Positions 3,155 to 60,151 of a DNA stretch of 64,000 nt are shown piece after piece (within the stretch, counting starts at the first letter, position 1; each line of letters starts with the position of its first letter). The stretch covers positions 238,002,554 to 238,066,553 of the forward strand of contig OY856186.1 in assembly GCA_963693315.1 (NCBI GenBank). The letters are read 5' to 3'. The position numbers and the translations under genes are program-made. The notes beneath the pieces were generated by a model. The model was not told the DNA's origin, ran no database searches, and worked only from the letters and a program-made list of their open reading frames with translations. This stretch comes from Diogma glabrata. Taxonomy: Eukaryota; Arthropoda; Insecta; Diptera; Cylindrotomidae.

Positions 3155-3459
3155 ATAAAAATGTTACTTAACTATCGTTTTTTTAAGAATCGGGCAGAAA
3201 ACGTGGTTTTTGGAAATTTTTTGACTCAATTTTGTGATTTTGATATCAATCGATCGGGCCTGGCCATCTCCCGAAAACTTTATGAGATTGGGTGGTAGGA
3301 CCCACCCCCACCGCTGTACACCCTCTTTAAGTTTTAGCATATAAAAATCTATATAAAATAAATGGGAAGAGATAAAAAAAATTTTATGGCACCGTTATCT
3401 TTTATTCAGACCGGCGCAACTTTTGAGTCCAAAAGTTGGGTTGCACCCCCACCCCCAAC
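3155..3459 (+). repeat. Large fold-back element, left arm, outer part
   Basis: This segment is the inverted counterpart of about 21190-21499. Shared landmarks are the AACTATCGTTTTTTTAAGAA start, the GATTGGGTGGTAGGACCCAC / GGGTCCTACCACCCCAATCT block and the ACCGTTATCTTTTATTCAGA block. The left arm is interrupted at 3460 by a hAT-like insertion and resumes at 5566. Confidence 0.8.
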
Positions 3460-5557: not shown

Positions 5558-5565
5558 CCCACAAC

Positions 5566-6664
5566 CTACCCCGTGGGTGGGGTTGACACATTAATTGAGT
5601 TAAATATGTCATGTGGGGTATCGTTAGAATCAGAATTTCATAACAAATATAATCCTCTATATTACCCCCTGATCATAACCATTTTTTTACTCCCAAGGGG
5701 GTACCCTTATCGTAGACAAAAATATTTTTTTGCATGTCATGTTTGGTGTCGATTTCAATATAATCGGGGATGCTGAGTTCAATGATGTTGATAAAAATGG
5801 AGGCCGGACTCGGGTAGTCCAAAAAGGGGTGGAGGTTGGGGGATCGGTTATAAAAACTATCGAGATTATCGTCATAATAAAAATTGGGGTCGGACTTAAG
5901 GTAGTCCAATAATTGGTGAGGGTTGGTGGGGGGTTGGGCGGTCGGTTATACAAAGTATCGAAATTATTGTCATTACCATCGATTTTTACATAATCGAGGA
6001 TGCTGAGTTCAATGGTGATGGTAAAAAATGTTAACCGGACTCAGGGTAGTTCAATAAGGGATGGGGGATGGGGGTCGGTTATAAAAAATATCGAAATTAT
6101 CGTCATCATTATCAATTTTAACATAATCGAAGATGTTGCGTTTAATTATGATAAGAAAAATTGGGACTGGACTCAGGGTAGTCCAATAATAGGTGGGGGT
6201 TGGGGGGGTCGGTTACACAAAGTATCGAAATTATTGTCATTATTATTGATTTTTACATAGTTGAGAATGCTGAGTTCAATGGTGATGTTAAAAAATGTTG
6301 CCCGGACTCAGGGTAGTTAAATAAGGGGTGAGGGTTGTGGGTCTGGTCATGAATAGCATCAAAATTATCATCATTATTTCATCATCACTGCATTACCACT
6401 TGCATCATCACTGATGATAAAAATGGTGACCGGATTTAGGGTAGTTCAATAAGGGGTGGGGGTTGGGGGTCTGGTCATGAATATTATCAAAATTGTCGTC
6501 ATTAGTGTTGATTTCAACATAATTGAGGACGCTGAATCCAACAGTGATGTTTAAATTGGGATCAAAAACATAAGGGTGTCACTAAAAGGTGGGAGGTGGA
6601 GGCTGAAAGCCGAAAATGTTCACACATATATTATGAGTATTGATTTTGGATGATAAATCAAGGG
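5566..6664 (+). repeat. Large fold-back element, left arm, inner part with ~130-bp tandem units
   Basis: This continues the left arm after the hAT-like insertion and is the inverted counterpart of about 20560-21190. From about 5755 it consists of diverged tandem units of roughly 120-135 bp, each with an AATCGAGGATGCTGAGTTCA-like start, then GGACTCAGGGTAGTTCAATA, a G-rich stretch (GGGGTGGGGGTTGGGGG) and TATCGAAATTATTGTCATTA. Units begin near 5755, 5975, 6110, 6245 and 6505, with broken ones between. The arm is cut at 6670 by the Polinton and resumes at 19764. Confidence 0.8.
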
Positions 6665-6670
6665 CACTGA
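6665..6670 (+). repeat. Polinton target site duplication, left copy (CACTGA)
   Basis: CACTGA immediately precedes the first base of the left TIR and is repeated exactly at 19764-19769 after the right TIR. Six base pairs is the length made by Maverick/Polinton integrases. Confidence 0.93.
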
Positions 6671-7632
6671 AGTAGTGTTATCCCACTTTCGTAAATTTTC
6701 AGGTAATTATCCCACTATCGTAAATTTTCAAGTTTAAATCAATTTTTTTTTTGTTTGATAAGCTACAACAACAATTGCATTGAGAGACTGAGTTAAAAAA
6801 AATGGATTACGTATTGCTAAGATTATTCAATGTACGAAACTGAATATAATTTTTTTACTTCGAATTGCATTGAGAGAATGATCTTGAAAGAAAACTAGCG
6901 AAAACGATTAAAATATTTTTTTTGTTGTATCTTATAAGAAAAAATTAATTTTCTTCGTCACGAAAAAAAGTAAAGAAATGTGGGACTATCCAACAAATGT
7001 TTTAAAATAGATTATTCAATGAGTTGACTGAATCAACTGAGAAAAAACAACAACAATTGCATTCAATTTTTCAGTTGTATCAGTTGCTTCAGTCAAATAT
7101 GAGTTTGTGTTTTAATCTTGCGGTCGAATAAAAAACTTGAAAGAAAAACTAGAGAAAGTGATTTAAATCTTTTTTTGTTGTTGTATCTTATAAGAAAAAA
7201 TTCATTTTCGATCCCACTATCTTTCATGAGTTGAGTTGACTGAATCAACTGAGAAAAAACAACAACAATTGCATTCAATTTTTCAGTTGTATCAGTTGCT
7301 TCAGTCAAATATGAGTTTGTGTTTTAATCTTGCGGTTGAATAAAAAATGGTTGTCTCGATATTATGCCACTTTGTTAATCGAAAGCAAAATATGAAAAAG
7401 CATGTGAATTGAATTTTTTTGTTTCATAACTTTTGTCTCGATATTATGACATTGAATTTTGTTTCATAACTTTTGTCTCGATATTATATCGTAATTGCGT
7501 GCGGCTTTTTTTTTGCGTTAAATGCATAAATAATTTTTTTCATTGGGGCACATGTGTTGTTCTAGTTTTTTTTTTGTTGTTATATAAGATTTTGTTGAAA
7601 AAACTAAAAAATTATAAATAGATGTTCGAAAT
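6671..7632 (+). repeat. Polinton left terminal inverted repeat
   Basis: This is the inverted partner of 18342-19763. It starts with two tandem copies of a 29-bp unit (ATCCCACT[TT/AT]CGTAAATTTT...), whereas the right TIR has three. It holds a ~200-bp internal duplication (about 7035-7130 and 7230-7345, both with GTTGACTGAATCAACTGAGA). The innermost shared stretch (about 7600-7632) includes TATAAATAG and GATGTTCGAAATG, the same sequence that forms the core promoter of the ATPase gene at the other end. Confidence 0.9.
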
Positions 7633-7788
7633 GTGAAAAACTTGCTATAATTTTGGAAAAAACTTATTTAAATAAAAAATGAAATCTTTTTTTTTATTTT
7701 TTTTGTTATAGTTTTGTAAAAACTTTAAACAAAATTTTTATTTTATTAATTAATTTTTTAAAATTTGTTTAAATACATTAAATTTTTA

Positions 7789-8163
7789 TTAAAACAGCTG
7801 ACCATCCATCTCGAATTGAGTTTCGTCTTCAACCAATAACGCCATTGGTTTCACACGAAACTCATATAATGGTGCGTTCATTTTGGAAGCATCTCTACCG
7901 ATGAATTTGATCAGCATATTTGTGATGTTGGCTTCTTGGCCAACAAATAATTTTGTTAGCCTTGGCGGCATGTATAAATTCCCGGTATCTTTGATGACCA
8001 GCACAACCCGGTCCCCAAATTTTGTCTTTACCAGCTTGTAGCTGGTCACCTCGTGTTCAATGTTTAGCCCCAATTCTTCCGGCTTTAGTATTTGGCTTTG
8101 CACAGTCCGTGCTGCACTGTTCAACGATTCAACGAAAGAAGAAGCCTGGAAAATTAAAAACAA
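7789..8163 (-). CDS. Small Polinton protein, probable OB-fold / ssDNA-binding type
   Basis: The frame gives about 118 residues after ASSFVESLN. The core TSYKLVKTKFGDRVVLVIKD followed by LYMPPRLTKLF has the alternating strand pattern (Y-x-L...-T-K-[YF]-G-x-R-[VI]-V...L-P-x-R) seen in small unassigned proteins of arthropod Polintons, and I infer an OB-like fold. The 5' end is unresolved. An ATG at 8209 lies just upstream but out of frame, separated by sequence with a GTAACC donor-like site and a TTTTCCAG acceptor-like site just before GCTTCTTCT (8145); the obvious splice does not keep frame, so either a different intron or a small lesion is present. A TATAAATA lies at 8310-8303. It is the leftmost gene and ends about 155 bp inside the left TIR. 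Confidence 0.65.
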   Translation of the reverse strand: MFLIFQASSFVESLNSAARTVQSQILKPEELGLNIEHEVTSYKLVKTKFGDRVVLVIKDTGNLYMPPRLTKLFVGQEANITNMLIKFIGRDASKMNAPLYEFRVKPMALLVEDETQFEMDGQLF

Positions 8164-8210
8164 TTAAAAATAAATTAATTAATATAGTTTGAGAGGGGTT
8201 ACTTGCCATT

Positions 8211-8585
8211 TCGATTTTTTTTGTTTTGGTTTTAAATTCACAAGTGATGTGTTGTTCGCCTTAGTTTTCTGATTATGATTTGAGATTGATTTTATGCAAT
8301 TGTATTTATACCATTTTTCTTTAGATTATTTTGCATGTTTTTCTGTTCTTTATTTCTGTATTCCCCTGCATGGGGTAATTGAACACATGGGAAAATTTTA
8401 ATTTCAATAAATCGAAAATGTTTTCAGTTATTGAATTCATTCCGACGATTTTACTTTTCTTTTTTTCACATTTTCTTGCATCGGGTTTTTTTGTTTTAAA
8501 GTTTTTATTTGCATTTTAAATTTAGTTTAAATTTGAACTAGCTAAGTGATAGACGCAAATAAAAATACGTGAAAAAAATGAATAA
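8211..8585. other. Noncoding gap where the polymerase N-terminus would be
   Basis: This AT-rich stretch separates the OB-like gene promoter from the first readable polymerase codon. Neither strand shows an Exo I motif or other polymerase N-terminal sequence, which suggests a deletion of that part of the gene. Confidence 0.5.
8303..8310 (-). promoter_or_regulatory. TATA box candidate for the OB-like gene
   Basis: TATAAATA on the minus strand, about 95 bp upstream of the ATG at 8209. Four other minus-strand Polinton genes have a similar TATA-like motif upstream of their start. Confidence 0.45.
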
Positions 8586-11054
8586 TTATTTAAGAGACAA
8601 CATGTTTTTGAAAACGACTCGACTGACAATTGCGTAAAAAAATTTATCGATTTCTGCGAAACATTCCGCAAAAACTCTTCTCAAATATTTTGTATAGCCC
8701 ATAATTTTAAATCGTATGATGGTCAGTTTATAGTTAAAGAGCTGGCGAAACGAGACAAGCCAATTCTTCCTATTTTAGGTGGAATGAAAATTTATAAAAT
8801 AACCTATGATAATCATATTTCTTTCATTGATTCGTTACATTTTCTGCCAATGGCTCTATCTAAATTTCCTGAAACATTTGGTTTGGAAAATTTGTCTAAA
8901 GGTTGGTATCCTCACTTTTTTAATACACCTGAGAATTACAACTATGTAGGTGATCTTCCCGATCGCAAATACTTTGGAATATCTCATATGAGTCAGAAGG
9001 ATGTTAAAAAATTCAACAACTGGTATAGTGAACAGTCACAGCTCAGTTTACCTTACGATAATCGGAAGGAATTAATTAAATATTGTTGCCTAGATGTTGA
9101 AATTCTTCGCAAGGGTTGTATTAAATTTATGAATGATTTCTTAACTACAACAGATGTTAACCCTTTGTTGCAATCATTTACATTAGCTCAGGCAGTAATG
9201 CTAGCTTATCGTAAGAAATTCTTAGCGTAAAAAACTTTGGGGGTAATTCCAACAAATTTGTACAACCATGCCGATAAAAACCAATCTCGTATTGGACTAA
9301 AATGGTTAATTTATGAGAGTAAACAAATTTCAGAAAAAATCTCTTTCGAAGTAAAAATACCAACTACCAATTTTTACGTGGATGGGTTTTGCGCAAGCAG
9401 CAATACTGTCTATGAATTTCTAGGATGCTATTGGCATGGATGTCAAAAATGTTTTGTAGCCAGAAACATTGAGATAAATGGTAGCGATTCGTTCGTTAAC
9501 AAGTACGAACAATCAATGGCTAGATTGCATGTTATAGAGTCGCTAGGGTACAACATTAAAAAAATTTGGGAGTGCAAGTTTAAGAACTTCCTGTCTGAAA
9601 ACCCCGAGCTATCCGCAACTCTAGATAACGACCGTGAATTACAGTATAGTCATCTTGATCCTAGAGATGCCCTGTATGGTGGTCGAACCGAAACATTTCA
9701 GCCTTACCACAAAGTAAAGAATGGTGAAAAAATAAGATATTTTGATTTTACATCACTCTACCCGTATGTAAATAAATATGGTAAAAACCCCATTCATCAT
9801 CCAAAAGTCTTTCGCAGAGAAGAGTGTGAGAACCTCGATATCTTAAGTATTGACGGTCTAATCAAGTGTTTAGTGCTACCCCCTCAAAAACTATTAATTC
9901 CAATTCTTCCAATGAAAATAAATAACAAACTTCTATTTACTTTATGTCGAACGTGCGGAGAAACTGAAAATGTTTGCAACCGTTGTACACATGAGGAATC
10001 TGAACGAATGTTATCAGGTACTTGGGTATTGAACGAAGTCAAACTAGCAATTAATCATGGTTACAAGATTGCAGAAATTTTTGAAGTTTGGCAATACGAG
10101 ATAGCTCAATATAATAGAGAAAAAAAGTGTGGCGGCGTGTTCACTGATTATATGAATTGCTTCCTTAAGTTAAAACAAGAAGCAAGTGATTGGCCTCCAA
10201 ACGTTTCCACTCAAATTGAAAAGGAAAACTACATTAAGGAGTTTTTTGAAGGGATTCATTTGGATCCAAAAGCAATTACAAATAATCCTTCACAAAGAGG
10301 TTGCAGTAAACTTCTTTTAAATGCGCTTTGGGGAAAATTGGGTCAAAGAAATGATAAGAATCAGACGGCCATCATTCATACAGTTTCTGAATTGTACAAA
10401 TTAATCTCATCCCCAGGAGTTGAAATTACCGATGTATTTCCAGTAGAAAATGTTCTATGGGTGAAATGGAAACATCCAAGTAATGATTTTGTTATACCAC
10501 TTAAACACGCTTCCGTAGCTGTGGCCGCATTTACTACGGCTAATGCTCGAATTAAGCTTTACAAAGAGCTAGCGAAAGTTCAAGGAAAACTTCTCTATTG
10601 TGATACCGATTCAATTATTTTTATAGAAGACGTGTCAAATGAAGGAGTGCTTAAAACGGGTAATTTTGTAGGTGATTTAACCGACGAATTATCAGGATAC
10701 GGAAAAAATGCCTATATTACTGAATTTGTTAGTACAGGGCCTAAAAGCTATGGGTTCATTGCGTTCAATCCTGATAAAGAGGAATATCATGAGACGGCAA
10801 AGTGTAAAGGCATAACACTAAATGTTGAATCGCAAAAATCTTTGAATTTTTATACTTTGAAGAGCATTGTAACCAATGTTAGTGATGAAGGCTTTCGTAC
10901 GGTCTGTGACTAAAAAAAAATTAAGAGACGAAAAATATTAGAAGTAGTTTCTCAGCCTGAAATTAAGAAATTTGGGTTTACATATAACAAGCGAATTTGT
11001 CTTGATGACTATAAAACAATCCCATTTGGCTTTATTTTTTTAACCTATTTTTAA
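8586..11054 (+). pseudogene. POLB: Protein-primed family B DNA polymerase, N-truncated with two in-frame stops
   Basis: This replicates the element using a protein primer. Visible motifs in order: Exo II AHNFKSYDGQF (8697-8729), Exo III YCCLDVEIL (9081-9107), EFLGCYWHGCQKC (about 9415-9455), YGG as LYGGR (about 9671-9685), motif A DFTSLYP (9744-9764), a CxxC-type insert CRTCGETENVCNRCTH, motif B SKLLLNALWGKLG (about 10306-10344), motif C DTDS (10602-10613) and a C-terminal FGFTYNKRI region. Catalytic aspartates of the polymerase domain are present. The frame is open from 8586, but the upstream Exo I (DxE) segment is missing and 8211-8585 looks noncoding. Two TAA codons, at 9228-9230 and 10911-10913, interrupt one continuous frame that otherwise runs to 11054. 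About 820 codons remain against roughly 1000-1200 in intact relatives. Confidence 0.95.
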
Positions 11055-11190
11055 AAAATGTTTTGTTTAGTTTTAATTTTTCTCGTTTTTAATAGTAATA
11101 TTGTATTTTAATATGTAATAAAAAGGTTTAAAACAAAAATAAATATAATTATAATAAATACGAAATGTAAATATAGAATAAGTGTTAAAT

Positions 11191-12111
11191 TCAAATAAAA
11201 TTATTTTTATTTATCCAAAAGTTGTGTGTTTTATTGAAACCTAACCATTTTACGAGAAGTTGATTTTTTTTCTTTCGTAAAACTCTTTCTACCAAATATA
11301 TGTCAGGATGTTTTGTCTTTTGTAATTCATGTTCATAAAATCGGCCGAAAATTGGTTGATTTTTAAAATCTTTTAACAAATATGTTACAGGAAATTTATG
11401 TTTTACCTCATCTATTTGAAAAATCTCTGGAGACCAATTTGCAGTATAAGATTTTTCGAAAATTGTTTTATGTTTGCTAACTCAAACATAATCGTCTTTC
11501 TTAAATTTTGCTCTACCCAGTTTTGGTTTGTAATCAAAAACATTTTTTAGAAGATACGATTCATTTTTATTCGATACATCAATGGGGGCCATTTTTATAG
11601 TTCGGTGTCTACTCCGATTGTACACATTAACTATTTCGGTAATTATGTCTATCCATTTATAAGAGCCGCGAAAACTAAACATTCTCCACATTCGTTGTTT
11701 TATAGTTCTATTTAGTCTCTCAACTATACTAGCTTTTAAGAAACTAAATGAAGAATAATGGTTTATATTGTGTTTCTCCATTAAATTTTTGAATTCTCTA
11801 TTATAAAATTCTTTCCCCATGTCCGTTTGAAGATGTTTTGGAAACCTTTGATTTGTTTCCATTATTTGTTGCAGTTCTCCAGAAATTTCTCGACCTGTTT
11901 TAGTTTTAAGGGGTGATACCCAGCAAAATTTAGAGAAAGTATCGATAATCACCAAAAGAAATCGATAATTATTATTATATTTGCTGTATGCAGTTAATTC
12001 AACAAGATCGGCTTGCCATAGATCATCTATCCCTTTTGTTATAACTTTTCTTCTTTCGAAATTTTTTCTTGCTTGTTTATGTAATTCGTTTATCACTTCT
12101 TGGCGCTCCAT
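11191..12111 (-). pseudogene. INT: Polinton integrase (DDE, retroviral type) with C-terminal chromodomain, one in-frame stop
   Basis: This enzyme inserts the element, making the 6-bp duplication. From the start ATG at 12111 (MERQEVINEL) the order is: an ARKNFERRKV entry segment, then the rve catalytic core with Asp in LWQADLVEL (about 12000), Asp in LQTDMGKEF (about 11820) and Glu in IVERLNRTIKQR (about 11725), then a linker, then a chromodomain at the end (YLVERVLRKKKNQLLVKWLG, about 11300-11215). I prefer the ATG at 12111 over an in-frame GTG further up because a TATAAATA sits at 12167-12160. The frame is continuous except for a single TGA at 11484-11482, between core and chromodomain, plausibly a CGA to TGA change. 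Without it the protein would be 306 residues. Confidence 0.95.
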
Positions 12112-12159
12112 TTTGATTGAAGTTATTGGTTGTTTTAATAGCTTCCACACGACGCCGGC

Positions 12160-12167
12160 TATTTATA
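12160..12167 (-). promoter_or_regulatory. TATA box candidate for the integrase
   Basis: TATAAATA on the minus strand, 49 bp upstream of the integrase ATG at 12111, followed by a GC-rich GCCGGCGTCG stretch unusual for this region. The interval 12112-12262 separates the integrase from the plus-strand gene at 12263, so it should hold a divergent promoter pair. Confidence 0.5.
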
Positions 12168-12262
12168 AATGTTCAATGCTGTTGATCAAATAGTAAGTGT
12201 TGTTAAATTCATTTTGATTTTAGTTTATTAAGTTCTTTTCAACTGAGTACTTCACAGTAAAA

Positions 12263-12901
12263 ATGGAGAGGATTGTTAAGGAAAAAGTTAAGAAGTTAGT
12301 AATGCGTAAACCAGATTTATTGCTGTCGTATGTTTATTTTTTAAACGACAATAAATCATGTTTCATTGTAATTGGCTACAATACAGAAATTTTCAAACCA
12401 CAACTGCTGTTGATTAATGATAAAGATTTTATTTGCTTTGCTTGGGATGACTGGAATCTATTTTTCAACCAAATTGGATTAGTTCAACAATATTTTGAGG
12501 GAGATGACATCGAAAAATTCAAACAAATGTTAGCCAGGAAAGACAACAGATACAGATTATCGTACAACAACGGGAAGAAGTATGTAATCTTTTCCGATAA
12601 ATCTTTTAAAATACAATTGAATGGAGAAGAATGGGGCAGATTGCAAGAGTTGGCGCCTTTGATTCACTCAATATTTAGCTGGTATAGGCTAACTTACAAG
12701 GATGTAAGAGCCTATTACAATTTATATATGCAAAAATGTGTTCAACAAAATTGTACAAAGCTGGACTACAAAGACTTTTTCACGCCAACACACGAAAATA
12801 CAAACCAATGCAACTATTCCAGATTATTTAACGAACTACCAATTTTGTCTAAAAACAAACTGATTTGTGACTTGTATAATAATCTTTGTATAAATATTTG
12901 A
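12263..12901 (+). CDS. Unassigned Polinton protein, 212 aa, possibly two PC4-like ssDNA-binding repeats
   Basis: The frame is intact from ATG 12263. I do not recognise a named family. Two segments resemble each other in layout: residues about 28-70 (CFIVIGYNTEIFKPQLLL ... FAWDDWNLFF) and about 95-130 (KYVIFSDKSFKIQLNGEEWG ... LQEL). Each is a run of beta strands closed by an acidic-Trp helix start, which recalls the beta-beta-beta-beta-alpha PC4/coactivator fold; that is inference only. The C-terminal third has four cysteines (KCVQQNC, NQCN, LICD). It is transcribed away from the integrase, and with the polymerase it is one of only two plus-strand genes, so a role in replication or early expression is more likely than one in the virion. 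Confidence 0.75.
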   Translation: MERIVKEKVKKLVMRKPDLLLSYVYFLNDNKSCFIVIGYNTEIFKPQLLLINDKDFICFAWDDWNLFFNQIGLVQQYFEGDDIEKFKQMLARKDNRYRLSYNNGKKYVIFSDKSFKIQLNGEEWGRLQELAPLIHSIFSWYRLTYKDVRAYYNLYMQKCVQQNCTKLDYKDFFTPTHENTNQCNYSRLFNELPILSKNKLICDLYNNLCINI

Positions 12902-12954
12902 GACATATTAAAAAAATAATAAAATTAGTAAAAAATTGTTTCATTTTGTTTTTA

Positions 12955-13085
12955 TTAAATTTTTTTTTTATTAAATTTTTTTTATTAATTTTTTTTTATT
13001 ATTTTTTTTTAGTTTTTTTTTTTTTAAATTTTTTTTTATCTTTTTTTTTTTTTTTCTTAATTTTTTTTTTTGAATTTTTTTCTGC
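12955..13085 (+). repeat. Poly-T low-complexity tract
   Basis: Nearly pure T with scattered A, directly downstream of the gene ending at 12901 and upstream of the converging protease gene. It lies between two convergent genes and may contain their 3' ends. The F-rich frame across it is not a gene. Confidence 0.7.
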
Positions 13086-13204
13086 AGTGGTATTGAAAGT
13101 CTGAAAATAAAAGTTTGTTATTAGTTGATTTAAAAAAAAATTTAATAACACACTTTTACCTACATTGAACAAGTTTGATCATGTTTTTCAAGCTGGACGA
13201 GTTT

Positions 13205-13693
13205 TTATTTGGTTCGTTCACCGTTTTTTCTTTGCCTTTTGTTAAAGTACTTTTTGTAGACAAAATTCACGATGCGATCGTTGTAGTCAGACATATCGGT
13301 TTCAAATCCGTTTAAAAAACTTTTCATTGATTTTCCACTACATCTATGATGGAGGTAGATACAGCAATATTTACCACACATTAAACTGTAGCGATTTTGT
13401 AGTTCTTTTGGATTGTAAATGTATGACTTTGAGTTGTTTAACAAAAAAGCGCGGAATCTACGATCGAATGGTTTTCTACCAAACGAATCAAAAAACTCGG
13501 CACGAGCTCCAGAGGGAAAATGAATTGCAACTCAATGTGTTCCCGGTTTGTGTGATGGATCAGTATTAATAACGTAGCATGCGGGTTTATTTAAGACTGT
13601 TTTAGGCAGTTGATCAATTGCGTACACACCACGAAAATATTTTTTTGTGATAGGATTTTTTTGTAGGGCTAGAGTTAACTCTGTTGTATTCAT
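13205..13693 (-). pseudogene. PRO: Adenovirus-type (C5/ULP1-like) cysteine protease with one in-frame stop
   Basis: In related viruses this protease matures virion proteins. The full frame runs from ATG 13693 to 13205, 162 codons, which is a normal length. The catalytic His is in KPGTH at residue 53, the acidic residue in AEFFDSFG (about 66-69), and the catalytic Cys in SLMCGKYCC (about 103-111), the order expected for the fold. The codon right after His53 is TGA (13534-13532), where the family has Trp; a TGG to TGA change explains it. Downstream the frame is undamaged. A TATAAATA-like box (about 13739-13732) lies next to the end of the capsid gene, whose stop is at 13741. Confidence 0.93.
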
Positions 13694-13731
13694 AATGTCT
13701 TAATGTGTAGTTAAATCTGAAGTTTGTTTAT

Positions 13732-13739
13732 TTATATTT
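13732..13739 (-). promoter_or_regulatory. TATA box candidate for the protease
   Basis: ATATAAATAAAC on the minus strand about 40 bp upstream of the protease ATG (13693), followed by CTTCAGATTTAAC, which resembles an arthropod initiator. The same TTCAGATTT follows a TATA motif upstream of the penton-like gene. Confidence 0.4.
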
Positions 13740-13740
13740 T

Positions 13741-15036
13741 TTACTGATCTAAAATAATGTTTCTATTTTGATCAATCTCCAAGCTAGCATCATACTCCAT
13801 GTAAATTAAACATGTTAAAGTGTTAGAAATCGGTGCATCAAAACGTGCCTCAAAACGTATATTTCCTTGATTGGCTAAAGATGAACAGCCATCGTTGGAT
13901 GCTAAATCCGGTGTGAGATCGTACGCGATCATAAAATAGCCGGATGCATACATTTCTCTTGTAATAAGGTTGCCCTGAGGTGAGTGCAGTATACCCATAG
14001 TAGAAAAGATTGTCGAATATGCACGCGCACACGAATCACCACCGGTAAATGAGGTTGTTATAGATGCACTAGGTGTTGGAACCCCATTTACATACAAAGT
14101 GCACGAAGCCATTTTATTGTGTTTGAAATTGTAAGGATTCTTTTTCTTCGAACCAATGTATGCATCATTATCAACCATAAAAAATATTAAATTTGTTGGC
14201 ATCTGCCCCAACACAATATTATCCAAATTTAAGGAGTTACCGCTTGCAGGTATCGTATATGATTTCACCTCACATCTCTTATAATGATATTTTGCATTTG
14301 TTTGTTCAAGCATCTTATGATGCGCGATCAAAACATTAGGATTAATTGCACATTATTTTACGTAAATTGTTGCCTCAAGTATTTTTATAGATGTGTCATC
14401 GGTTGCCGCATCAGTCATAAGATAAAATTCAGGTTTGTTGAGCGTAAAAGTTAATCTCACATCAACATTGTTCAAAAGTAATAGCGGTTGATTTAACATA
14501 TCTGCATGCACTTTTCCGTACAACTCAACAATGTTACTATTTTTCACTAAACTGTGTCTTTTCAACAATCCTTCTTGAGATGGCGGTAAAGTATCAAGTT
14601 TTTTGGTATCCGGATAAAACCCCGATAACTCCAAATGTGTCCTGCTCGCATCCTCACCAAAATTCAATAATGTTTCAATGTACGCTTTATAACTGTAATT
14701 ACCGTCTGAGGAATTTATGTTTTTTCCATTCAACGAAACATTTACCTGACGAAACAGTGAATGCAACATATTATTTATTACGGTTGGTTGAGATGTATCC
14801 GCATCCGTGTACAATGCACCATTACTTTTGGTTAGACGTAGTTTTACACATAGGTTTATTGAGGATAAATCTAAATACATATCACTATGTTCATGACATA
14901 CGAATTCAATGATCGATTGGTTTTCTAAACTAGTTAAAGGTTTGTAGGCAACTTCTTCGGTTTTCACAATGTTTGTTTGAATGTTACGAGGTGCGAAAAG
15001 ATCCAATTCGGATTTCATACACTCTCGGAAAGACAT
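13741..15036 (-). pseudogene. MCP: Polinton major capsid protein (double jelly-roll), one in-frame stop
   Basis: The frame starts at ATG 15036 (MSFRECMKSELDLF) and continues to 13741, 431 codons. The N-terminal half has IEFVCHEHSDMYLDLSSI and LFRQVNVSLNGKNI, and the C-terminal half KYHYKRCEVKSYTIPASGNS, LGQMPTNLIFFMVDN and FMIAYDLTPDL; these are the conserved blocks of Polinton/adintovirus hexon-like capsid proteins. A TAA at 14355-14353 falls near the boundary between the two jelly rolls, and the frame is otherwise unbroken. The next upstream gene ends only about 20 bp before the start (15056), consistent with a compact late-gene block. I cannot judge from sequence whether a half-capsid would be stable. 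Confidence 0.93.
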
Positions 15037-15055
15037 TTTTGTTTAAGTTTTTAAA

Positions 15056-15565
15056 TTATTTAAATATATCTAAAAAGCGTGGTTTTTTGTTTGGTGTGCG
15101 TTTATTTGATAGATGCTTCTTTACACGAACTGCTAAGATGCTCGATTGTCTTTTTTCAGAAGTTGCTCTCTTATTTATTGGGTTTTTCAAGCTTCGTTTG
15201 AATCTTTTTCTTTTGCGCTTTTCGATGCCTGTTCCAGCCATTGCATTTATTTTATCGATTGTCTTATCTCTTAATTTGTCAACAACTTGCACCGATCGAT
15301 CACGAAGAATATTTTGTATCGGTTTTTGCGCACTAATATTTTTTAAAATGTCGGAACCCGTGTCAATTAACTCGTTCTTTAAAAAATTTGCACCACTTTT
15401 TAGAAGCGGTTGAAGATATTTCCAGAAACTAGCAAATACACTACCAATCCCTCGACCTCGCTGATATACTTTTGGCAATTTTAACACATTTCCAAATTCA
15501 TCGTTGACGGTTGGATTATTTCCACCGTGTTGTTGAACGTAATATTTTAGATAAGCGTTATGCAT
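15056..15565 (-). CDS. Basic virion core-like / minor structural protein
   Basis: The start is placed at ATG 15565 (MHNAYLKYYVQQHGG), because this is the conserved N-terminus in related elements; a longer in-frame extension to 15646 overlaps the penton-like gene and reads as hydrophobic junk. The protein has about 169 residues. It shows the RGRGIGSVFASFWKYLQPLL motif (about residues 36-55), then an amphipathic part, then a highly basic tail (EKRKRKRFKRSLK, RVKKHLSNKR). This layout matches the short basic protein encoded next to the capsid gene in Polintons and adintoviruses, compared by others with adenovirus core or pX-like proteins. DNA condensation or capsid cementing is inferred. The frame is intact. 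Confidence 0.8.
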   Translation of the reverse strand: MHNAYLKYYVQQHGGNNPTVNDEFGNVLKLPKVYQRGRGIGSVFASFWKYLQPLLKSGANFLKNELIDTGSDILKNISAQKPIQNILRDRSVQVVDKLRDKTIDKINAMAGTGIEKRKRKRFKRSLKNPINKRATSEKRQSSILAVRVKKHLSNKRTPNKKPRFLDIFK

Positions 15566-15596
15566 TGTAATAAAATTTAAAAACTGTTTCACCTCT

Positions 15597-16472
15597 TTAT
15601 ATACCTTTACGAAAATGTAAAACAACCATTGTACAAAATGAATCATTTTTAAAATTTATCTGTTCCCCATTTTCATCCGTTAATAGTAGACTGATATCTG
15701 TAATCAGTGTTCTCTCGAGTCGTGCATATTGAATTTTTCCTATTTCACAGTTTTGATAACTCTCAAATTGCCTTTTATATTTTACGGGATGCATTACTAA
15801 CCCTCTAGCCATTATATTACCAAACATTTGAGGTCGCACTATATCACAATAAATACACATATAGTTCGGTACAGCTTCAGATTCTGGGAAGGGCTCCGGT
15901 AAAATTACTTTGACACGTTTCTTTAACATCGTTAGTTTTTGCTCTGATAAAGATTGTGAAGGTTTAATTGCAATCGATTCTTTTAAATTTTTTATAACTT
16001 TGCTCCATTCAGTTTTATCAATTTGTGAAAATAAGTAGTCAAAGAGTAGATTTATTGTGTATTCTTTATTAAATTTCAATTTAAAATTGCGTTTATCAAC
16101 ACCAACTTGAACGAATTCTTTTGAAAAAACGTAAAAAGGCACGTCAGCAGACTCAGAATATCGATCGAAAAAATCTTCATGTTGAACGATTTCAAATAAA
16201 GTTGGATACTGTCTTAATATATCTAATATTTCTACACCAGTATTACCTCGTTCTGCAATAAACGTTATAGTCGGATCTTTTCCGCGTTTCTTCATTATAG
16301 AGGTGCAAGCAAATTTTGATACACCCATATACCATTCTGCGTGATCGTCACCCTTCAAGTTAAGTGAATAAGGAAGTTTAACAGTAAATCTTGATAGTGT
16401 GTTATGCGGATAAAAATCCAGAGAGCTGTTACTTGTTAATGTAATATAAAAAGATTTTTGATCAGCTAGCAT
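15597..16472 (-). CDS. Minor capsid (penton-like, single jelly-roll) protein
   Basis: The frame is intact, 291 residues from ATG 16472. The N-terminus SFYITLTSNSSLDFYPHNTL ... RFTVKLPYSLNLKGDDHAEW and the C-terminal PNYMCIYCDIVRPQMFGN ... RGLVMHPVK are the two conserved blocks of the Polinton penton protein, which forms capsid vertices. The middle (residues about 90-180) is lysine-rich and less conserved. The gene lies between the basic core-like gene (31 bp downstream) and the disordered protein gene (55 bp upstream), the usual neighbourhood. It is one of the undamaged virion genes in this copy. Confidence 0.9.
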   Translation of the reverse strand: MLADQKSFYITLTSNSSLDFYPHNTLSRFTVKLPYSLNLKGDDHAEWYMGVSKFACTSIMKKRGKDPTITFIAERGNTGVEILDILRQYPTLFEIVQHEDFFDRYSESADVPFYVFSKEFVQVGVDKRNFKLKFNKEYTINLLFDYLFSQIDKTEWSKVIKNLKESIAIKPSQSLSEQKLTMLKKRVKVILPEPFPESEAVPNYMCIYCDIVRPQMFGNIMARGLVMHPVKYKRQFESYQNCEIGKIQYARLERTLITDISLLLTDENGEQINFKNDSFCTMVVLHFRKGI

Positions 16473-16527
16473 TGTAGACGTCGTGTGATAACATCAAAAA
16501 TCTGAATGATGATTAACACTTATAAAC

Positions 16528-17361
16528 TTAACTTTTATAGCTTTGCCAGGGAATCGTTTGTTGTTTTGATTTTGTTTTTTGTGTTTTTTTTTTTGGTGTG
16601 CTCGTTTCACTTTTTGTTTTTTTCCGTTTAGGAAAATTTATAACACTTTGCGTTGGATCAACTCTCGACCTTTTTGTTGTAGAACGTGTGAAACGGCGTT
16701 CAACTGGAACGTTCACATTCTCTCCCGTATTCAATTCAAATACCCTGTACTCTTGAGGATTTAGAGAAAGTCTTTCTTTCGATATTCTTACATCGGGCGG
16801 TTGACCTTCTAGAGCTCTTCGTCGCACGCTATCATCCATATCTAATTCTTGAATTTCATCAAAACTACGAAAACTCTGATCGTCATTATTATCCGCATTT
16901 TCAAAACTAGAAAATCTATTAAATGTTTCAAACAGTTCATCAAATGATTTAGGCTCTTGAATTTGTTTCATCATCTTAGTTTGTGTTGCAATATTTCGAC
17001 CTTCAGACGTTTCAGTTTGATTTTTTGCGTTACGCCCTTTTAAAATCTTCGTTTGCGTGTTCCCATCCACCTTTAACTGGTTATTTAAAACATCGCTATC
17101 AGCTTGCGTCTGTTTATTTAATACAACGCTAGAGTTTAAGCCTGGAAAATGATTTATTCCAATTGGTCTTCTTTTCACATTTAACATTTTTAAAAGACTT
17201 TGTCGGTAATAGTTCCATTTATCGATATCGTTTAGTTTATTATTGTACAAAATCTTTTTCATTTCACGATCTAATGCCGATAGTTTATTGTCTTCTAACA
17301 TAATTTTTTTCCACTGCTCAAATGTATCAGGATGAACAACAATCATACGTTGTAAACTCAT
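16528..17361 (-). CDS. Conserved Polinton protein with disordered, basic C-terminus
   Basis: The frame is intact, 277 residues. The N-terminal ~60 residues (RMIVVHPDTFEQWKKI ... LDREMKKILYNNKLNDIDKW) match a block recurrent in Polintons of unknown role. The middle is Q/T/N-rich with three copies of an N/TQT[KE] pattern (QTQAD, NTQTKIL, ATQTKMM). The C-terminus is basic (RRFTRSTTKRSRV, PKRKKTKS, PKKKTQKTKSK) and ends IPWQSYKS. The start codon overlaps the stop of the upstream gene as ATGA. Position and charge suggest a virion-associated or DNA-binding protein; no enzymatic motif is visible. Confidence 0.75.
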   Translation of the reverse strand: MSLQRMIVVHPDTFEQWKKIMLEDNKLSALDREMKKILYNNKLNDIDKWNYYRQSLLKMLNVKRRPIGINHFPGLNSSVVLNKQTQADSDVLNNQLKVDGNTQTKILKGRNAKNQTETSEGRNIATQTKMMKQIQEPKSFDELFETFNRFSSFENADNNDDQSFRSFDEIQELDMDDSVRRRALEGQPPDVRISKERLSLNPQEYRVFELNTGENVNVPVERRFTRSTTKRSRVDPTQSVINFPKRKKTKSETSTPKKKTQKTKSKQQTIPWQSYKS

Positions 17362-17693
17362 TTTGTAACTTCCTCCAATAACTTTCCAATAACCCCAGAT
17401 AAAACAGCTGATAAGATAATAGGCAAAAATCCACCTTTTTGTACTAGCACCTTACGTTTCACCGATAAATTAGATTTGGAATCGACAATTTAACGTAAAG
17501 CACTCTTATGTTTCTTCAAACAAGTTTTACGTTTGTTATCGGTATTGACATTACCATTTAAAACATTTAAACACACTTCATATAAGGCTTTGATTAAATC
17601 TGTTTTACTTTTTTCTAATATAAATTTACGTATACGGGGCTTACAATTTCTTAACATATGTAACGTATGTTTGTGTACCATGAGCCGCTTCAT
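17358..17693 (-). pseudogene. Small Polinton protein with C-terminal membrane segment, one in-frame stop
   Basis: The full frame runs from ATG 17693 to the TGA at 17360-17358, 111 codons. The first part is helical and basic (LHMLRNCKPRIRKFILEK ... LYEVCLNVLNGNV), a pattern common in small Polinton and adintovirus proteins. The last part reads KVLVQKGGFLPIILSAVLSG ... IGKLLEEV, a single hydrophobic helix. A TAA at 17492-17490 interrupts the frame just before the basic linker, so the membrane segment is cut off in the annotated frame. The start overlaps the end of the ATPase gene by 53 nt and the stop overlaps the next start (ATGA). Membrane association is inferred from the hydrophobic helix. 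Confidence 0.8.
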
Positions 17694-18318
17694 TCCTTTT
17701 TAGCTGTGATACTAGTTTAGATGGCGCATAACACTCTTGATAATCTTTATTAAAAATACTCGAGCGGAAGCGAAATAAGTCGTTGCACGATTGTGTCAAA
17801 TCCATAAATAAATAACCGTAAGGCTTTGAAGCTGTCTCCTTATATACTCTTACAAACTCTTTGATATTTTCTGGATAAATTTGTCTAGCAAGCGGGTAGA
17901 TTTGAGATTTATCTCGGGGGTTATTAAACATAACTAAGTATTTGCAGTTTAACGAAATGTCTCTGCAAAATTTTCCTTGATGGAACACATTTTGGGTAAT
18001 TAATATAACAGATATATTTCGATGATGTGAACCCTTGGTAAATAATTCACAAACGTTTTTATTATACGCCTCAGTCATTAAATCATCCAAGATGATTAAT
18101 GTGTTTTCTAGATTATCAAAATTTTCGGGGACGTTGTCTAACATTTCAATATCTTCAAAATCGAAATCTTTTAGATCGACCGAATTAGTTTCACCATTGC
18201 ACCAAACCAGTTTCTTTATACCATGAATATGTGGCAAGAACTTTAATACAAACGTGGTCTTCCCCGAAGAAGAAGGACCAGAAATCTGCATGGTAAAAGG
18301 TTGTTCCACATTAAACAT
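17641..18318 (-). CDS. ATP: FtsK/HerA-type genome-packaging ATPase
   Basis: The frame is intact, 225 residues from ATG 18318. Walker A is GPSSSGKTT (residues 14-22), Walker B is LIILDD (74-79), and a VILITQN sensor-like strand is at 104-110. The family packages DNA into icosahedral capsids with double jelly-roll capsid proteins. It is the first gene of the minus-strand virion block. A TATAAATAG lies at 18364-18357, and this promoter is part of the right TIR: the same sequence occurs at about 7607-7632 in the left TIR. No lesion is visible, in contrast to its neighbour. Confidence 0.95.
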   Translation of the reverse strand: MFNVEQPFTMQISGPSSSGKTTFVLKFLPHIHGIKKLVWCNGETNSVDLKDFDFEDIEMLDNVPENFDNLENTLIILDDLMTEAYNKNVCELFTKGSHHRNISVILITQNVFHQGKFCRDISLNCKYLVMFNNPRDKSQIYPLARQIYPENIKEFVRVYKETASKPYGYLFMDLTQSCNDLFRFRSSIFNKDYQECYAPSKLVSQLKRNEAAHGTQTYVTYVKKL

Positions 18319-18341
18319 ATTTTTTGAAATAAATGATATGG

Positions 18342-19763
18342 TCCATTTCGAACATCTATTTATAATTTTTTAGTTTTTTCAATTAACAACTTATTTCAGG
18401 CATCCGTCTAAAATTCCAAATAAAAAGTTTTTAGGTTTCCAACACATCATAATTTTTTTTCCAACACAATTTGTTCTAATTCTTCTGATCGCTTTACACA
18501 CAAAATCTTATATAACAACGAAAAAAAAAACTAGAACAACACATGTGCCCCAATGAAAAAAAAAATCGAAATCTTACTTAATCATTTAACGCAAAAAAAG
18601 CCGCACGCAATTACGAAACAAAATACAAAATACTACAACAAAAACAATTTTTGTTACCTACAAAAAAATATATCATGAACATCTTCAATTTTTGTTTTGT
18701 CGAGAAAATTAAAATCTTACATAACAAAACAACAAAGTGTCATAATATCGAGACAAGGTTATGATACAAAATTCAATTCACATGCTTTTTCATATTTTGT
18801 TTTCTATCCATTCTGTTTTTTTGTCAATCAATTAACGCATCATGTGAGAAAGTCCCATATTTTTGATTCTTCTGCTCGCTTAACACACAAAATCTTATAT
18901 AACAACAAAAAAAAAACAAGAACAACACATGTGCCCCAATGAAAAAAAAAATCGAAATCATACTTAATCATTTAACGCAAAAAAAAAGCCGCACGCAATT
19001 ACGAAACAAAATACAAAATACTACAACAAAAACAATTTTTGTTACCTTTAACACATCATGTGAGAAAGTCCCATATTTTTGTAATTAATATCGAGACAAA
19101 AGTTATGATACAAAATTCAATTCACATTGAATTCAATTGTTGTTGTTTTTCTCAGTTGATTCAGTCAACTCAACTCATGAAAGATAGTGGGATCGAAAAT
19201 GAATTTTTTCTTATAAGATACAACAACAAAAAAAGATTTAAATCACTTTCTCTAGTTTTTCTTTCAAGTTTTTTATTCGACCGCAAGATTAAAACACAAA
19301 CTCATATTTGACTGAAGCAACTGATACAACTGAAAAATTGAATGCAATTGTTGTTGTTTTTTCTCAGTTGATTCAGTCAACTCATTGAATAATCTATTTT
19401 AAAACATTTGTTGGATAGTCCCACATTTCTTTACTTTTTTTCGTGACGAAGAAAATTAATTTTTTCTTATAAGATACAACAAAAAAAAATATTTTAATCG
19501 TTTTCGCTAGTTTTCTTTCAAGATCATTCTCTCAATGCAATTCGAAGTAAAAAAATTATATTCAGTTTCGTACATTGAATAATCTTAGCAATACGTAATC
19601 CATTTTTTTTAACTCAGTCTCTCAATGCAATTGTTGTTGTAGCTTATCAAACAAAAAAAAAATTGATTTAAACTTGAAAATTTACGATAGTGGGATAATT
19701 ACCTGAAAATTTACGATAGTGGGATAATTACCTGAAAATTTACGAAAGTGGGATAACACTACT
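18342..19763 (-). repeat. Polinton right terminal inverted repeat
   Basis: This is the inverted partner of 6671-7632 but about 460 bp longer. Three differences explain the length: an extra stretch of about 100 bp at 18386-18483 not present on the left; a tandem copy of the AACACATGTGCCCCAATG ... GCCGCACGCAATTACG segment (about 18530-18650 and 18920-19040), single on the left; and three rather than two terminal 29-bp units. Conversely, the inner copy of the GTTGACTGAATCAACT segment is shorter here than on the left. Confidence 0.9.
18357..18364 (-). promoter_or_regulatory. TATA box of the ATPase gene, located within the TIR
   Basis: TATAAATAG on the minus strand, about 39 bp upstream of the ATPase ATG. 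Sequence identity with 7607-7632 shows it is part of the shared inverted repeat, so an equivalent inward-facing promoter exists at the left end, where it faces no plus-strand gene until the polymerase. Confidence 0.5.
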
Positions 19764-19769
19764 CACTGA
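19764..19769 (+). repeat. Polinton target site duplication, right copy (CACTGA)
   Basis: Exact repeat of 6665-6670, immediately after the last TIR base. Confidence 0.93.
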
Positions 19770-20290
19770 GTTCAATGGTGATGCTAAAATTAGTATTTGG
19801 GCTCTAGGGAAGAAACTAGAGGATAAGGGTTGGGGTCTAAAATTGGGGTAATGTTCAAATATACATAATAAATATTGGTTTTTTTATGAATCGAGAATGC
19901 TGAATCCTGAAATGTGAAGTTTATAAAATAAAGAATAAATGACATTAAATATTTTATAAACAGATTTTTTTCCGTCTAGTTTACTCAATATGGTTTAAAG
20001 ACGAAGTTCAATTATTTATACAAGAAAATGATGAGCACTCAAATTGATACAGTCTTATTTTTGTGGCATTTGTTTGTATATTTCAATAATAAAAATATAA
20101 GATATGTAAAGAATTTGCTATTTTAGTTTATTATTTTTCTTATTTAATAATTTTAAAATATTTTTCTACCATGCTTCGACGATACATCAATTTGACGATA
20201 TAATTCAACTAATATTTAAGAATAACCCACTTTTAAGGGGCTCCTCTGCTAAGTTACTCTAGCCTTGGTGTATAATGTATATTTGAACAT
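19770..20290 (+). repeat. Large fold-back element: end of left arm and loop
   Basis: From 19770 to about 19905 the sequence (GTTCAATGGTGATGCTAAAA, AAGAAACTAGAGGATAAG, TATACATAATAAATATTGG) is the inverted counterpart of about 20380-20510, which shows that the Polinton landed within the left arm close to its inner end. About 19906-20290 has no partner and is the loop. Confidence 0.7.
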
Positions 20291-21499
20291 TTTTTTACTC
20301 TCCACCCCATCCTCTAGCTTCTGATTTTGCTCCTATGGTTGCTTGATTGCATATTTGAAGACCACCATTGGATTCAGTATCCTCGATTCATAGAAAAACC
20401 AATATTTATTATGTATATTTGAACATTTCCCTAATTTTAGACAAAAACTCTTATCCTCTAGTTTCTTGCCTAGACCCCAAATACTAATTTCAGCATCACC
20501 ATTGCATTCAGTACCCTCAATTTATCCAAAATCGGTACCCATAATATATTTTCGGCTTTCAGCCCAAACTCCCACCTTTTAGTGACACCCTTATATTTTT
20601 GATCCCAATTTAAACATCACTGTTGGATTCAGCGTCCTCAAATATGTTGAATTCAATAATAATGATAATTTTGATACTATTCATAACTAGACCCCAACCC
20701 CCACCCCTTATTGAACTACCCTGAGTCCGGTCAACATTTTTACCATCACCATTGAACTCAGCATCCTCGATTATGTAAAAATCGATAATAATGACAATAA
20801 TTTCGATACTTTGTATAACCGACCCCCCAACCCCCCACCAACCCCCACTTATGATTGAACTACCCTGAGTCTGACCCCAATTTTTATTATGACGATAATT
20901 TCGATATTTTTTATAACCGACACCCCAACCTCCACCCTTTTTTGGACTACCCCGAGTTCGGTCCAATTTTTATCATCATCATTGAACTCAGCATCCCCGA
21001 TTATATTGAAATTGACCCCAAACAACACATGCAAAAAATTTTTTTTCTACGATAGAGGTACCCCCTTGGGAGTGAAAAATGGTTATGATCAGGGGGCAAT
21101 ATAGAGGATTATATTTGTTATGAAATTCTGATTCTAACGATACCCCACATGACATATTTTACTCATTTAATGTGTCAACCCCACCCACGGGGTTGGTTGG
21201 GGGCGGTGGGGGTGCAAACCAATTTTTGGACTTAAAAGTTGCGCCGGTCTGAATAAAAGATAACGGTGCCATTAAATTTTTTTTATCTCTTCCCATTTTT
21301 TTATATAGATTTTTATAAGCTAAGACTTAAAGAGGGTGTACAGCGGTGGGGGTGGGTCCTACCACCCCAATCTCATAAAGTTTTCGGGAGACGGCCAAGT
21401 CCGATCGATTGATACAAATTTATGAAAAAAAATTTGTTTAATTTCCGCGACTGCCCGATTCTTAAAAAAAACGATAGTTAAGGCAAAGTAACGATTTTT
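20291..21499 (-). repeat. Large fold-back element, right arm
   Basis: This uninterrupted arm is the reverse complement of the left arm pieces (3155-3459, 5566-6664, 19770-19905). It shows what the left arm looked like before the hAT-like and Polinton insertions, and carries the same ~130-bp units (GAACTACCCTGAGTC...CCATTGAACTCAGCATCCTC). It ends near AACGATAGTTAAGGCAAAGT. Confidence 0.8.
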
Positions 21500-52485: not shown

Positions 52486-53229
52486 TCTAACTAAATATTC
52501 AACGTATTAATATATAAGATAAAATAACAAAGAAAAATAACGTCCAAACTCTCCTAGATCAATGCATAAACTGAAAAGAAAATATAAAATACTATAAACA
52601 AAGAAAAGATTTGGACGATTCCATTTGATCCATATGATTTGATTTGAGGGGAGGCAGTTGAATTCAAAAATACATTATAATTCGTCTATAACTTTTTTAT
52701 TTATTATCCGAAAATCCCAAAAATCTATCTGATCTAGGTTACACTAATATCAGTTAGCAGTGAAAATTTGGAATTTGTGAAAATTCGAATAAAAAAGCCT
52801 TAGGCTGTACAAAGTACAAAGTTAGCGTATTAATATGTAAGATAAAAGTGTGGATATTTGTATGTATGTATGTATATTTTTGTTACTGATTTGTACTTAA
52901 GTCAATGATTCACAAATCTAATAATTTATAAATTTATTTGCGTTTAGCACTATGTGCTTTTGCAAATATATGATTTCACTTTTGTTATATTTTAATACCG
53001 GCCTAAAAAAAATAAGAAATGTAAACCATAAATAATTAAAATTCAATAAAAGTAACTATAAAGAAAAAAAAATTCTTTGAGATCAATAATAATGGCTGCA
53101 TCGTATGGATTGAATTTTATTTGATTTTGAAACGAAGTTTTTATTTGTACTCATTCAAAAAAACTATTATTGCTGTTATATATTAGTATTCAGGAACACA
53201 ATTTTTTTAAATTTTATCTTAATGCGATA
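52486..53229. other. Spacer between satellite and Helitron remnant
   Basis: AT-rich, with a short GTATGTATGTATATT run near 52860. No gene. Confidence 0.5.
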
Positions 53230-59580: not shown

Positions 59581-59740
59581 TTTTAGAATCAGTAGGTCCT
59601 AAAACGTCGAGAAATGCCAAAAAGTGGGGGGTAAGAAATTCACTTTTAGCTCATGAATGTAATACTTAGTTAGGTCTTTCAGACCGAAGTAAAAATAAAA
59701 TATGAATTTTGAATGTTATGTTGTCAATTAGTAAATATCG

Positions 59741-60151
<411 letters not shown>

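What the first reader, a model, noticed from the sequence alone, without database searches (positions are those of the whole stretch)
6671..19763. Structurally complete Polinton with a near-full virion gene set
Ends, 6-bp duplication, replication, integration, protease, packaging and capsid genes are all recognisable in one 13.1-kb unit. The gene set is that of adintovirus-like agents, so this locus is a good specimen for the transposon/virus boundary. Two genes (12263-12901, 7789-8163) have no confident function.
Basis: partly seen in the sequence, partly recalled or inferred. Interest (0 to 1): 0.8.

Follow-up and report, generated by a model that had tools for sequence, protein, structure and literature searches.

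The report
Broken copy of a virus-like transposon
This is one damaged copy of a virus-like jumping element (a Polinton) in an animal genome where many near-identical sister copies lack these breaks; it is a known kind of element, and the copy in this window probably cannot move by itself.

Summary
The ends, the 6-bp duplication (CACTGA) and the gene content are real: 6671-19763 is a Polinton/Maverick insertion with (AGT)2 ends, sitting inside an arm of an older palindromic repeat whose other arm gives a paralogous empty site. "Structurally complete" is wrong. PolB has lost its N-terminal part by a 2.2-kb deletion at 8590-8592, and six in-frame stops break PolB (two), integrase, protease, major capsid protein and a small virion ORF; 13741-14331 and 14353-15036 are one capsid gene split by a stop. 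In the host assembly 17 sister copies (about 98-99% identical) were compared: all six stops are private to the window copy, and 0 stops occur in 22,813 sister codons of the frames compared, although three of these sisters have a stop further upstream in PolB. Of the two unassigned genes, 12263-12901 has a predicted PUR/Whirly fold and matches adintovirus proteins, one named MOSUB; single-strand DNA binding is inferred. 7789-8163 is conserved and open in 4 of 4 sister loci, function unknown. Capsid, penton and protease names rest on weak profile evidence and recall. Gene-poor elements with the same terminal repeats have multiplied in the same genome. A new, broken member of a known kind.

The parts
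6671..7253 (+). left terminal inverted repeat, begins AGTAGT
   Evidence: 0 mismatches to the right arm over 583 aligned bases; the same repeat at many other places in the host assembly
19151..19763 (-). right terminal inverted repeat, one extra 29-bp tandem unit
6665..6670 (.). target-site duplication CACTGA, left copy
19764..19769 (.). target-site duplication CACTGA, right copy
7789..8163 (-). ORF of unknown function; the 119 residues compared are open and 96.6-99.2% identical in 4 of 4 sister loci; possible first exon ATG at about 8207 joined through a GC-AG intron (inference from sequence only)
   Evidence: no candidate in the protein search; single-sequence model useless, pLDDT 35
8590..8592 (.). 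junction of a deletion of about 2.2 kb (3-bp overlap of the two homology blocks) that removed the PolB N-terminal part
   Evidence: homology to sisters ends at 8592 and restarts at 8590; 2,198 and 2,162 bases lie between in the two sisters measured
8586..11040 (+). family-B (protein-primed type) DNA polymerase gene, N-terminally truncated, in-frame stops at 9228-9230 and 10911-10913
   Evidence: DNA_pol_B_2 E 5e-20 and 5.4e-27 for the two pieces searched apart
11191..12120 (-). retrovirus-type integrase with C-terminal chromodomain-like part, in-frame stop at 11482-11484 between the two
   Evidence: rve E 4e-12, Chromo E 2.7e-4 (below cut-off); solved integrases, best E 2.7e-7
12263..12901 (+). 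predicted PUR/Whirly-fold protein, probably single-strand nucleic-acid binding; open
13205..13690 (-). adenain-like protease (assignment from recalled motif), in-frame stop at 13532-13534; one base fewer at 13237 than 14 of 15 sisters
   Evidence: no Pfam match to either piece
13741..15042 (-). major capsid protein gene (double jelly-roll, probable), split by an in-frame stop at 14353-14355
   Evidence: Capsid_N E 0.016, below cut-off; open at this codon in 15 of 15 readable sisters
15056..15646 (-). basic virion-core-like protein, open (resemblance to the adenovirus pVI/core class is recalled)
   Evidence: 100% identical over 196 residues in the two copies compared
15597..16472 (-). minor capsid (penton) protein candidate, open
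   Evidence: 15 unnamed homologues over 73-100% of the query, 35-52% identical; name recalled, no profile or solved-structure support
16528..17361 (-). open ORF of unknown function in the virion module
17370..17700 (-). small virion-module ORF, in-frame stop at 17490-17492
17641..18318 (-). A32/FtsK-type packaging ATPase, open
   Evidence: Pox_A32 E 1.2e-8, 35.2 bits against cut-off 22.8
5558..21203 (.). older palindromic host repeat (about 2.5 kb without the insert) that the Polinton entered
   Evidence: inverted arms and their coordinates

Best explanation
A broken copy of a recently active, adintovirus-like Polinton family. Inferred from related elements: an intact family member replicates linear DNA by a protein-primed PolB from short repeated ends (AGTAGT), its displaced single strand may be coated by the PUR-fold protein, its integrase inserts it with a 6-bp staggered cut, and its virion module may package it. 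Shown here: this copy entered an older palindromic repeat, lacks the N-terminal part of PolB through a 2.2-kb deletion with a 3-bp overlap at the junction, and carries six stops that no sister copy examined has at those codons. It should therefore be unable to make full-length PolB, integrase, protease or major capsid protein and could move again only with proteins from sister copies (inference).
For: Ends, TSD and empty site; family profiles; stops; sister copies 97.7-99.3% identical in the PolB/integrase region with the six codons open: 18 of 18 for both PolB sites (one of these, S14, aligns at only 73%), 15 of 15 readable copies for each of the other four; 0 stops in 22,813 codons of 17 sisters against 6 in 1,435 of the window, in the same frames (sum); the 2.2-kb segment present in the two sisters measured; other insertions of the same ends with their own matching duplications, GATACC/GATACC and AACAGT/AACAGT.
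Against: Capsid, penton and protease identities are not proven by profiles here. Sisters are not all intact: one search lists one stop in the first PolB stretch of S8, S9 and S18 (and of S14), upstream of the codons read, and S11, S16 and S18 each have a frame-shifting length difference of their own in the frames compared. The arms without a mismatch suggest a very young insertion, while the interior carries 22 private substitutions in 4,937 sites and 4 in a further 2,968; if all arose after insertion, 3.8 arm mismatches are expected and 0 seen (P about 0.02), so either the arms were homogenised or part of the damage is older than the insertion.
Confidence: 0.9

Rival explanations
1. The copy was already defective when it inserted and was carried by helper proteins of intact sisters (mobilised in trans).
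For: No mismatch between TIR arms despite 26 private interior substitutions counted; gene-poor elements with the same TIRs did multiply, so helper-dependent movement is plausible.
Against: No copy examined shares any of the six stops, so no lineage of such defective copies is seen; arm homogenisation by gene conversion would explain the TIRs equally well.
Confidence: 0.3
2. The stops are assembly or sequencing errors.
For: Such artefacts are reported for endogenous viruses in protist assemblies (PMC10120064, passages read).
Against: Long-read errors mostly change length (recalled); here the six stops are substitutions, while in the frames compared the window differs in length from most sisters at three places only (6 bp at 10247, 1 bp at 11035, 1 bp at 13237), and 17 sisters in the same assembly have no stop in the same frames.
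Confidence: 0.05
3. The stops are recoded or read through and the genes work.
For: Two stops lie at what look like domain borders (between the two MCP halves, between integrase core and chromodomain-like part).
Against: All readable sisters are open at the same codons, and the deleted PolB N-terminal part cannot be read through.
Confidence: 0.02

Closest known systems
Polinton/Maverick elements of animals (PMC8097293, passages read)
   Same: (AGT)2 end motif, 6-bp target duplication, TIR length in the published range (46-1,447 bp), length in the published range of intact vertebrate copies (12,723-24,620 bp), PolB, rve integrase, ATPase and probable capsid-type genes; 96% of vertebrate loci in that study degraded
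   Different: gene order differs from the two-module vertebrate order: ATPase lies with the virion genes on one strand; PolB N-terminal part deleted
Adintoviruses (definition in PMC11071296, passages read; insect examples in PMC8363768, passages read)
   Same: rve integrase with chromodomain-like C-terminus; a gene whose predicted fold best matches two adintovirus proteins, one named MOSUB
   Different: the PolB N-terminal (OTU-like) part that helps define them is absent from this copy; hexon relation not testable here
Gene-poor elements in the same genome (loci L072-L074, L077, L082-L084, L086, L104-L109)
   Same: same termini; in four loci also the first 1.2 kb inward (6671-7887)
   Different: in two copies sampled over about 10 kb each, the window's proteins find only gene fragments

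Membership tests
Polinton/Maverick | terminal inverted repeats with a known end motif | tested here: met
   AGTAGT...ACTACT, 583 aligned bases without mismatch; motif as in PMC8097293
Polinton/Maverick | 6-bp target-site duplication | tested here: met
   CACTGA twice; paralogous empty site with a single copy
Polinton/Maverick | protein-primed type family-B polymerase | tested here: met
   DNA_pol_B_2 E 5e-20 and 5.4e-27 in two pieces; gene broken and N-terminally truncated in this copy
Polinton/Maverick | retrovirus-type integrase | tested here: met
   rve E 4e-12 above cut-off; solved integrases; gene broken by a stop
Polinton/Maverick | A32/FtsK-type packaging ATPase | tested here: met
   Pox_A32 35.2 bits against 22.8
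[quoted passage not shown]
   Capsid_N E 0.016, below cut-off, N-half only; no solved capsid protein matched by either half at E up to 10
[quoted passage not shown]
   15 unnamed homologues; no capsid profile or solved capsid matched
Polinton/Maverick | adenovirus-type (Ulp1-like) protease | tested here: inconclusive
   no protease in Pfam for either piece; motif recalled; in the PDB Dub1 only at E 1.3, ranked below ribosomal-protein matches at 0.2-0.8
Adintovirus | PolB with N-terminal OTU-like domain | tested here: not met
   that part is deleted in this copy; in one sister the first 258 residues of PolB gave no significant Pfam or PDB match, so the domain is not shown for the family either
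Adintovirus | integrase with C-terminal chromodomain | tested here: inconclusive
   Chromo E 2.7e-4, 21.3 bits against cut-off 25.1
Adintovirus | hexon recognisable by reciprocal BLASTP to adintovirus hexons | not testable with these tools
   no reference hexon set at hand
PUR/Whirly-fold single-strand nucleic-acid binding proteins | PUR repeat fold (in a predicted model) | tested here: met
PUR/Whirly-fold single-strand nucleic-acid binding proteins | binds single-stranded DNA or RNA | not testable with these tools
   needs a binding assay

The most novel reading that the evidence does not exclude
The host carries a two-tier Polinton system: a full-length family, most sampled copies of which are open in the frames compared, and a multiplied set of gene-poor elements with the same termini and, in four loci, the same scrambled internal junction at different insertion sites, i.e. 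non-autonomous Polintons moved in trans. The window copy adds an oddity: 6 of 26 private coding substitutions are stops (about 1.2 expected; P about 0.001; the regions were partly chosen because they hold stops), which could mean selection in the host for silenced copies.
Probability: 0.35. Interest if true: 0.55.

Novelty: new member of a known kind. Interest (0 to 1): 0.3.

Why it matters
It corrects the claim that this locus is a complete virus-like genome, gives one unassigned Polinton gene a testable fold-based function (single-strand DNA binding, as strand-displacing replication would need), and points to a genome with many near-identical Polinton copies plus multiplied gene-poor elements, where helper-dependent movement of Polintons could be studied by sequence alone.

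Tried and rejected
Viral contig scans with the ATPase, the minor capsid alignment, the PolB middle piece, ORF 7789, the PUR alignment and the MCP N-half gave nothing useful: one short PolB match (query residues 60-114), otherwise none. The prokaryote genome scan with the minor capsid alignment found none. PHROGs gave no match that helps. Rfam and tRNA scans of the window were empty. The ORF 7789 model was too poor to search.

A first idea, that the six stops were inherited and marked a trans-mobilised defective lineage, was built on TIR identity alone. The sister copies removed that argument, since all six stops are private. A second idea, that the window copy was a chimera with foreign TIRs (note), fell when two PolB sisters were found to share most of the left part up to 8592. 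A reading that there are no frameshifts at all was corrected: 14 of 15 sisters have one more base at 13237, and 16 of 16 sisters that reach it have one less at 11035, by the PolB end. S14 (73% identical) was dropped before the private-change counts; S8 and S10 were readable only in the PolB/integrase region. The frames read start at 9051 in PolB and leave out PolB 8590-9050, integrase beyond 11748, the PUR gene and ORF 7789.

The private changes pooled over sisters other than S18 are 39 nonsynonymous, 16 synonymous, 0 stop, not clearly different from the neutral expectation of 0.715/0.24/0.045; S18 alone shows 20 against 31, i.e. constraint during older divergence. Leave-one-out counts at invariant columns gave 7 private changes of 54 for the PUR protein (other members 0-5) and 0 of 25 for the minor capsid protein; within the closer clades the window has the most private changes in both (22 of 108 and 24 of 119), as an outgroup would, so no decay is concluded for either.

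The sister set is made of the best-scoring PolB places (490 candidates, 73 scored), so it is biased towards good copies. Not found out: the host species (assembly of 1.33 Gb, unnamed), the total copy number, and the content of the Starrett et al. 2021 adintovirus paper (not held). Paper searches: none held both 'mosub' and 'adintovirus' and none held Polinton, PC4 and single-stranded DNA-binding together; among the titles and abstract starts listed (12 of 32 papers; 8 of 8) none is about non-autonomous Polintons, but those full texts were not read for it. These searches cover open-licence PMC papers only.
Full report
What is there. The stretch 6671-19763 (13,093 bases) is a Polinton/Maverick insertion. 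Its arms pair without a mismatch over 583 aligned bases; the right arm has one extra 29-bp tandem unit and there is one 1-bp gap. CACTGA flanks it on both sides. It sits in one arm of an older palindromic repeat of the host (5558-21203 with the insert), and the other arm, rc 20421-20590, aligns across the joined flanks as a paralogous empty site. The ends begin AGTAGT, the published (AGT)2//(ACT)2 motif of vertebrate Mavericks, and length, TIR length and duplication fit the published ranges (PMC8097293, passages read).

Genes. Pfam supports PolB (two pieces searched apart, E 5e-20 and 5.4e-27), the integrase core (rve, E 4e-12) and the packaging ATPase (Pox_A32, E 1.2e-8), all above cut-off. 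The chromodomain-like part (E 2.7e-4) and the capsid N-terminal half (Capsid_N, E 0.016) stay below the curated cut-offs. Protease, minor capsid protein, core-like protein and the small virion ORF are named from gene order and recalled family motifs, not from a test; the minor capsid candidate has 15 metagenomic homologues, all unnamed.

Damage. Six in-frame stops were located: PolB 9228-9230 and 10911-10913, integrase 11482-11484, protease 13532-13534, MCP 14353-14355, small ORF 17490-17492. The MCP stop splits one frame into the ORFs 13741-14331 and 14353-15036. PolB upstream of 8586 is missing: homology with sister copies ends at window 8592 on the left and resumes at 8590 on the right; in the two sisters measured, 2,198 and 2,162 bases lie between, and in two further copies (L075, L076) the match also stops at 8592. 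In sister S11 an ATG opens the PolB frame about 420 codons before that point (with the coordinates), so the missing protein part is about 420 residues. In published work this part holds the terminal-protein and OTU-like domains (PMC11071308, passages read); I could not confirm them in a sister piece of 258 residues.

Sister copies. The host assembly (1.33 Gb, unnamed) rings 156 times for DNA_pol_B_2. Eighteen places were taken as candidate sisters from that list; 17 are 97.7-99.3% identical to the window in the PolB/integrase region and one (S14) is 73% and was dropped from counts. At the six stop codons the sisters are open: 18 of 18 and 18 of 18 for PolB (S14 included), and 15 of 15 readable copies each for integrase, protease, MCP and the small ORF. 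Over the frames compared (PolB from 9051 on), 17 sisters have 0 stops in 22,813 codons and the window 6 in 1,435 (sum). This does not make every sister intact: one search lists one stop in the first PolB stretch of S8, S9 and S18 (and of S14), upstream of 9051 or at codons other than the six, and S11, S16 and S18 each have a frame-shifting length difference of their own. Two further copies with the window's own TIRs, C1:363098104-363110433 and C5:23033192-23045364, are also open at the MCP and small-ORF sites and are 99.6% identical over 3.6 kb. The window lacks 6 bp at 10247 that all 17 close sisters have, and has one base fewer than 14 of 15 sisters at 13237 in the protease. So the damage listed belongs to this copy, not to the family. 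Copies that score worse in PolB were not examined, so the share of open copies in the genome is not known.

Age. The window has 22 private substitutions in 4,937 compared sites, against 1-8 in 16 sisters and 63 in S18, and 4 in a further 2,968 sites compared with two copies. Of these 26, all coding, 6 are stops; about 1.2 are expected (P about 0.001), with the caveats that the first regions were chosen because they hold the stops and that part of the coding sequence was not sampled. If all private changes postdated insertion, 3.8 mismatches between the arms would be expected; 0 were found (P about 0.02). TIRs also differ little between loci (1-3 of about 582 bases for 8 arms compared), so they may be homogenised or constrained and are a poor clock. 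I cannot decide between decay after insertion with homogenised arms and damage that was partly older.

Unexpected neighbours. Searching the assembly with the left TIR gave 115 matches, many as inverted pairs 8-18 kb apart. Three pairs with both outer flanks in hand have matching, different 6-bp duplications: CACTGA, GATACC, AACAGT. Four of the nine other loci fetched by that search carry one scrambled junction (window 7887 joined to inverted 18267) at 99.2-100% identity while the bases outside differ, so that arrangement has multiplied. In two elements with largely 97-98% identical interiors, sampled over about 10 kb each, the window's proteins found only fragments of ATPase, PolB, PUR and protease genes and of ORF 7789, and no integrase or capsid gene; an unassigned ORF of 154-196 residues is also there. 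The simplest reading is non-autonomous elements moved by proteins of the full-length family; that movement is inferred.

Verdict. A real Polinton with an adintovirus-like gene set, but a broken copy; known in kind. It is not filed as an adintovirus, because the PolB N-terminal part is absent from this copy.

Noticed in passing
5558-6670 and 19764-21203: An older palindromic repeat with internal tandem units of about 134 bp, which the Polinton entered; stretch 21202-21298 at its right edge recurs inverted at 3360-3456 (94.8%).
   Followed up: partly
G000 C4:11748672-11756628, C3:228086834-228102339, C251:10161-22546, C1:185872509-185884871, C1:322467584-322480547 and others; loci L072-L074, L077, L082-L084, L086, L104-L109: Gene-poor elements with the same terminal repeats as the window copy, sharing one scrambled internal junction or a largely 97-99% identical interior; probably non-autonomous Polintons.
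   Followed up: partly
window 7020-7347 and 18474-19047: Direct repeats next to the inner ends of the TIRs: a 116-bp copy on the left, copies of about 185 bp on the right; the TIR identity stops near there.
   Followed up: partly
50424-52486: Tandem array of a 134-bp unit, about 15 copies at 96%, with extreme GC skew.
   Followed up: no
45225-46274; 58786-59582; 42234-42572: Remnants of retroelement reverse transcriptases (RVT_1; the first recalled as Penelope-like) and a weak DDE transposase match.
   Followed up: no
59743-60150: TA dinucleotide array of about 204 units.
   Followed up: no
G000:C3:185493830 and C3:185509394: Two PolB sisters 15.6 kb apart in the same orientation, each with one stop in the first PolB stretch; the expected downstream genes were not found at the colinear places of the first, so they may be a partial tandem pair.
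   Followed up: no
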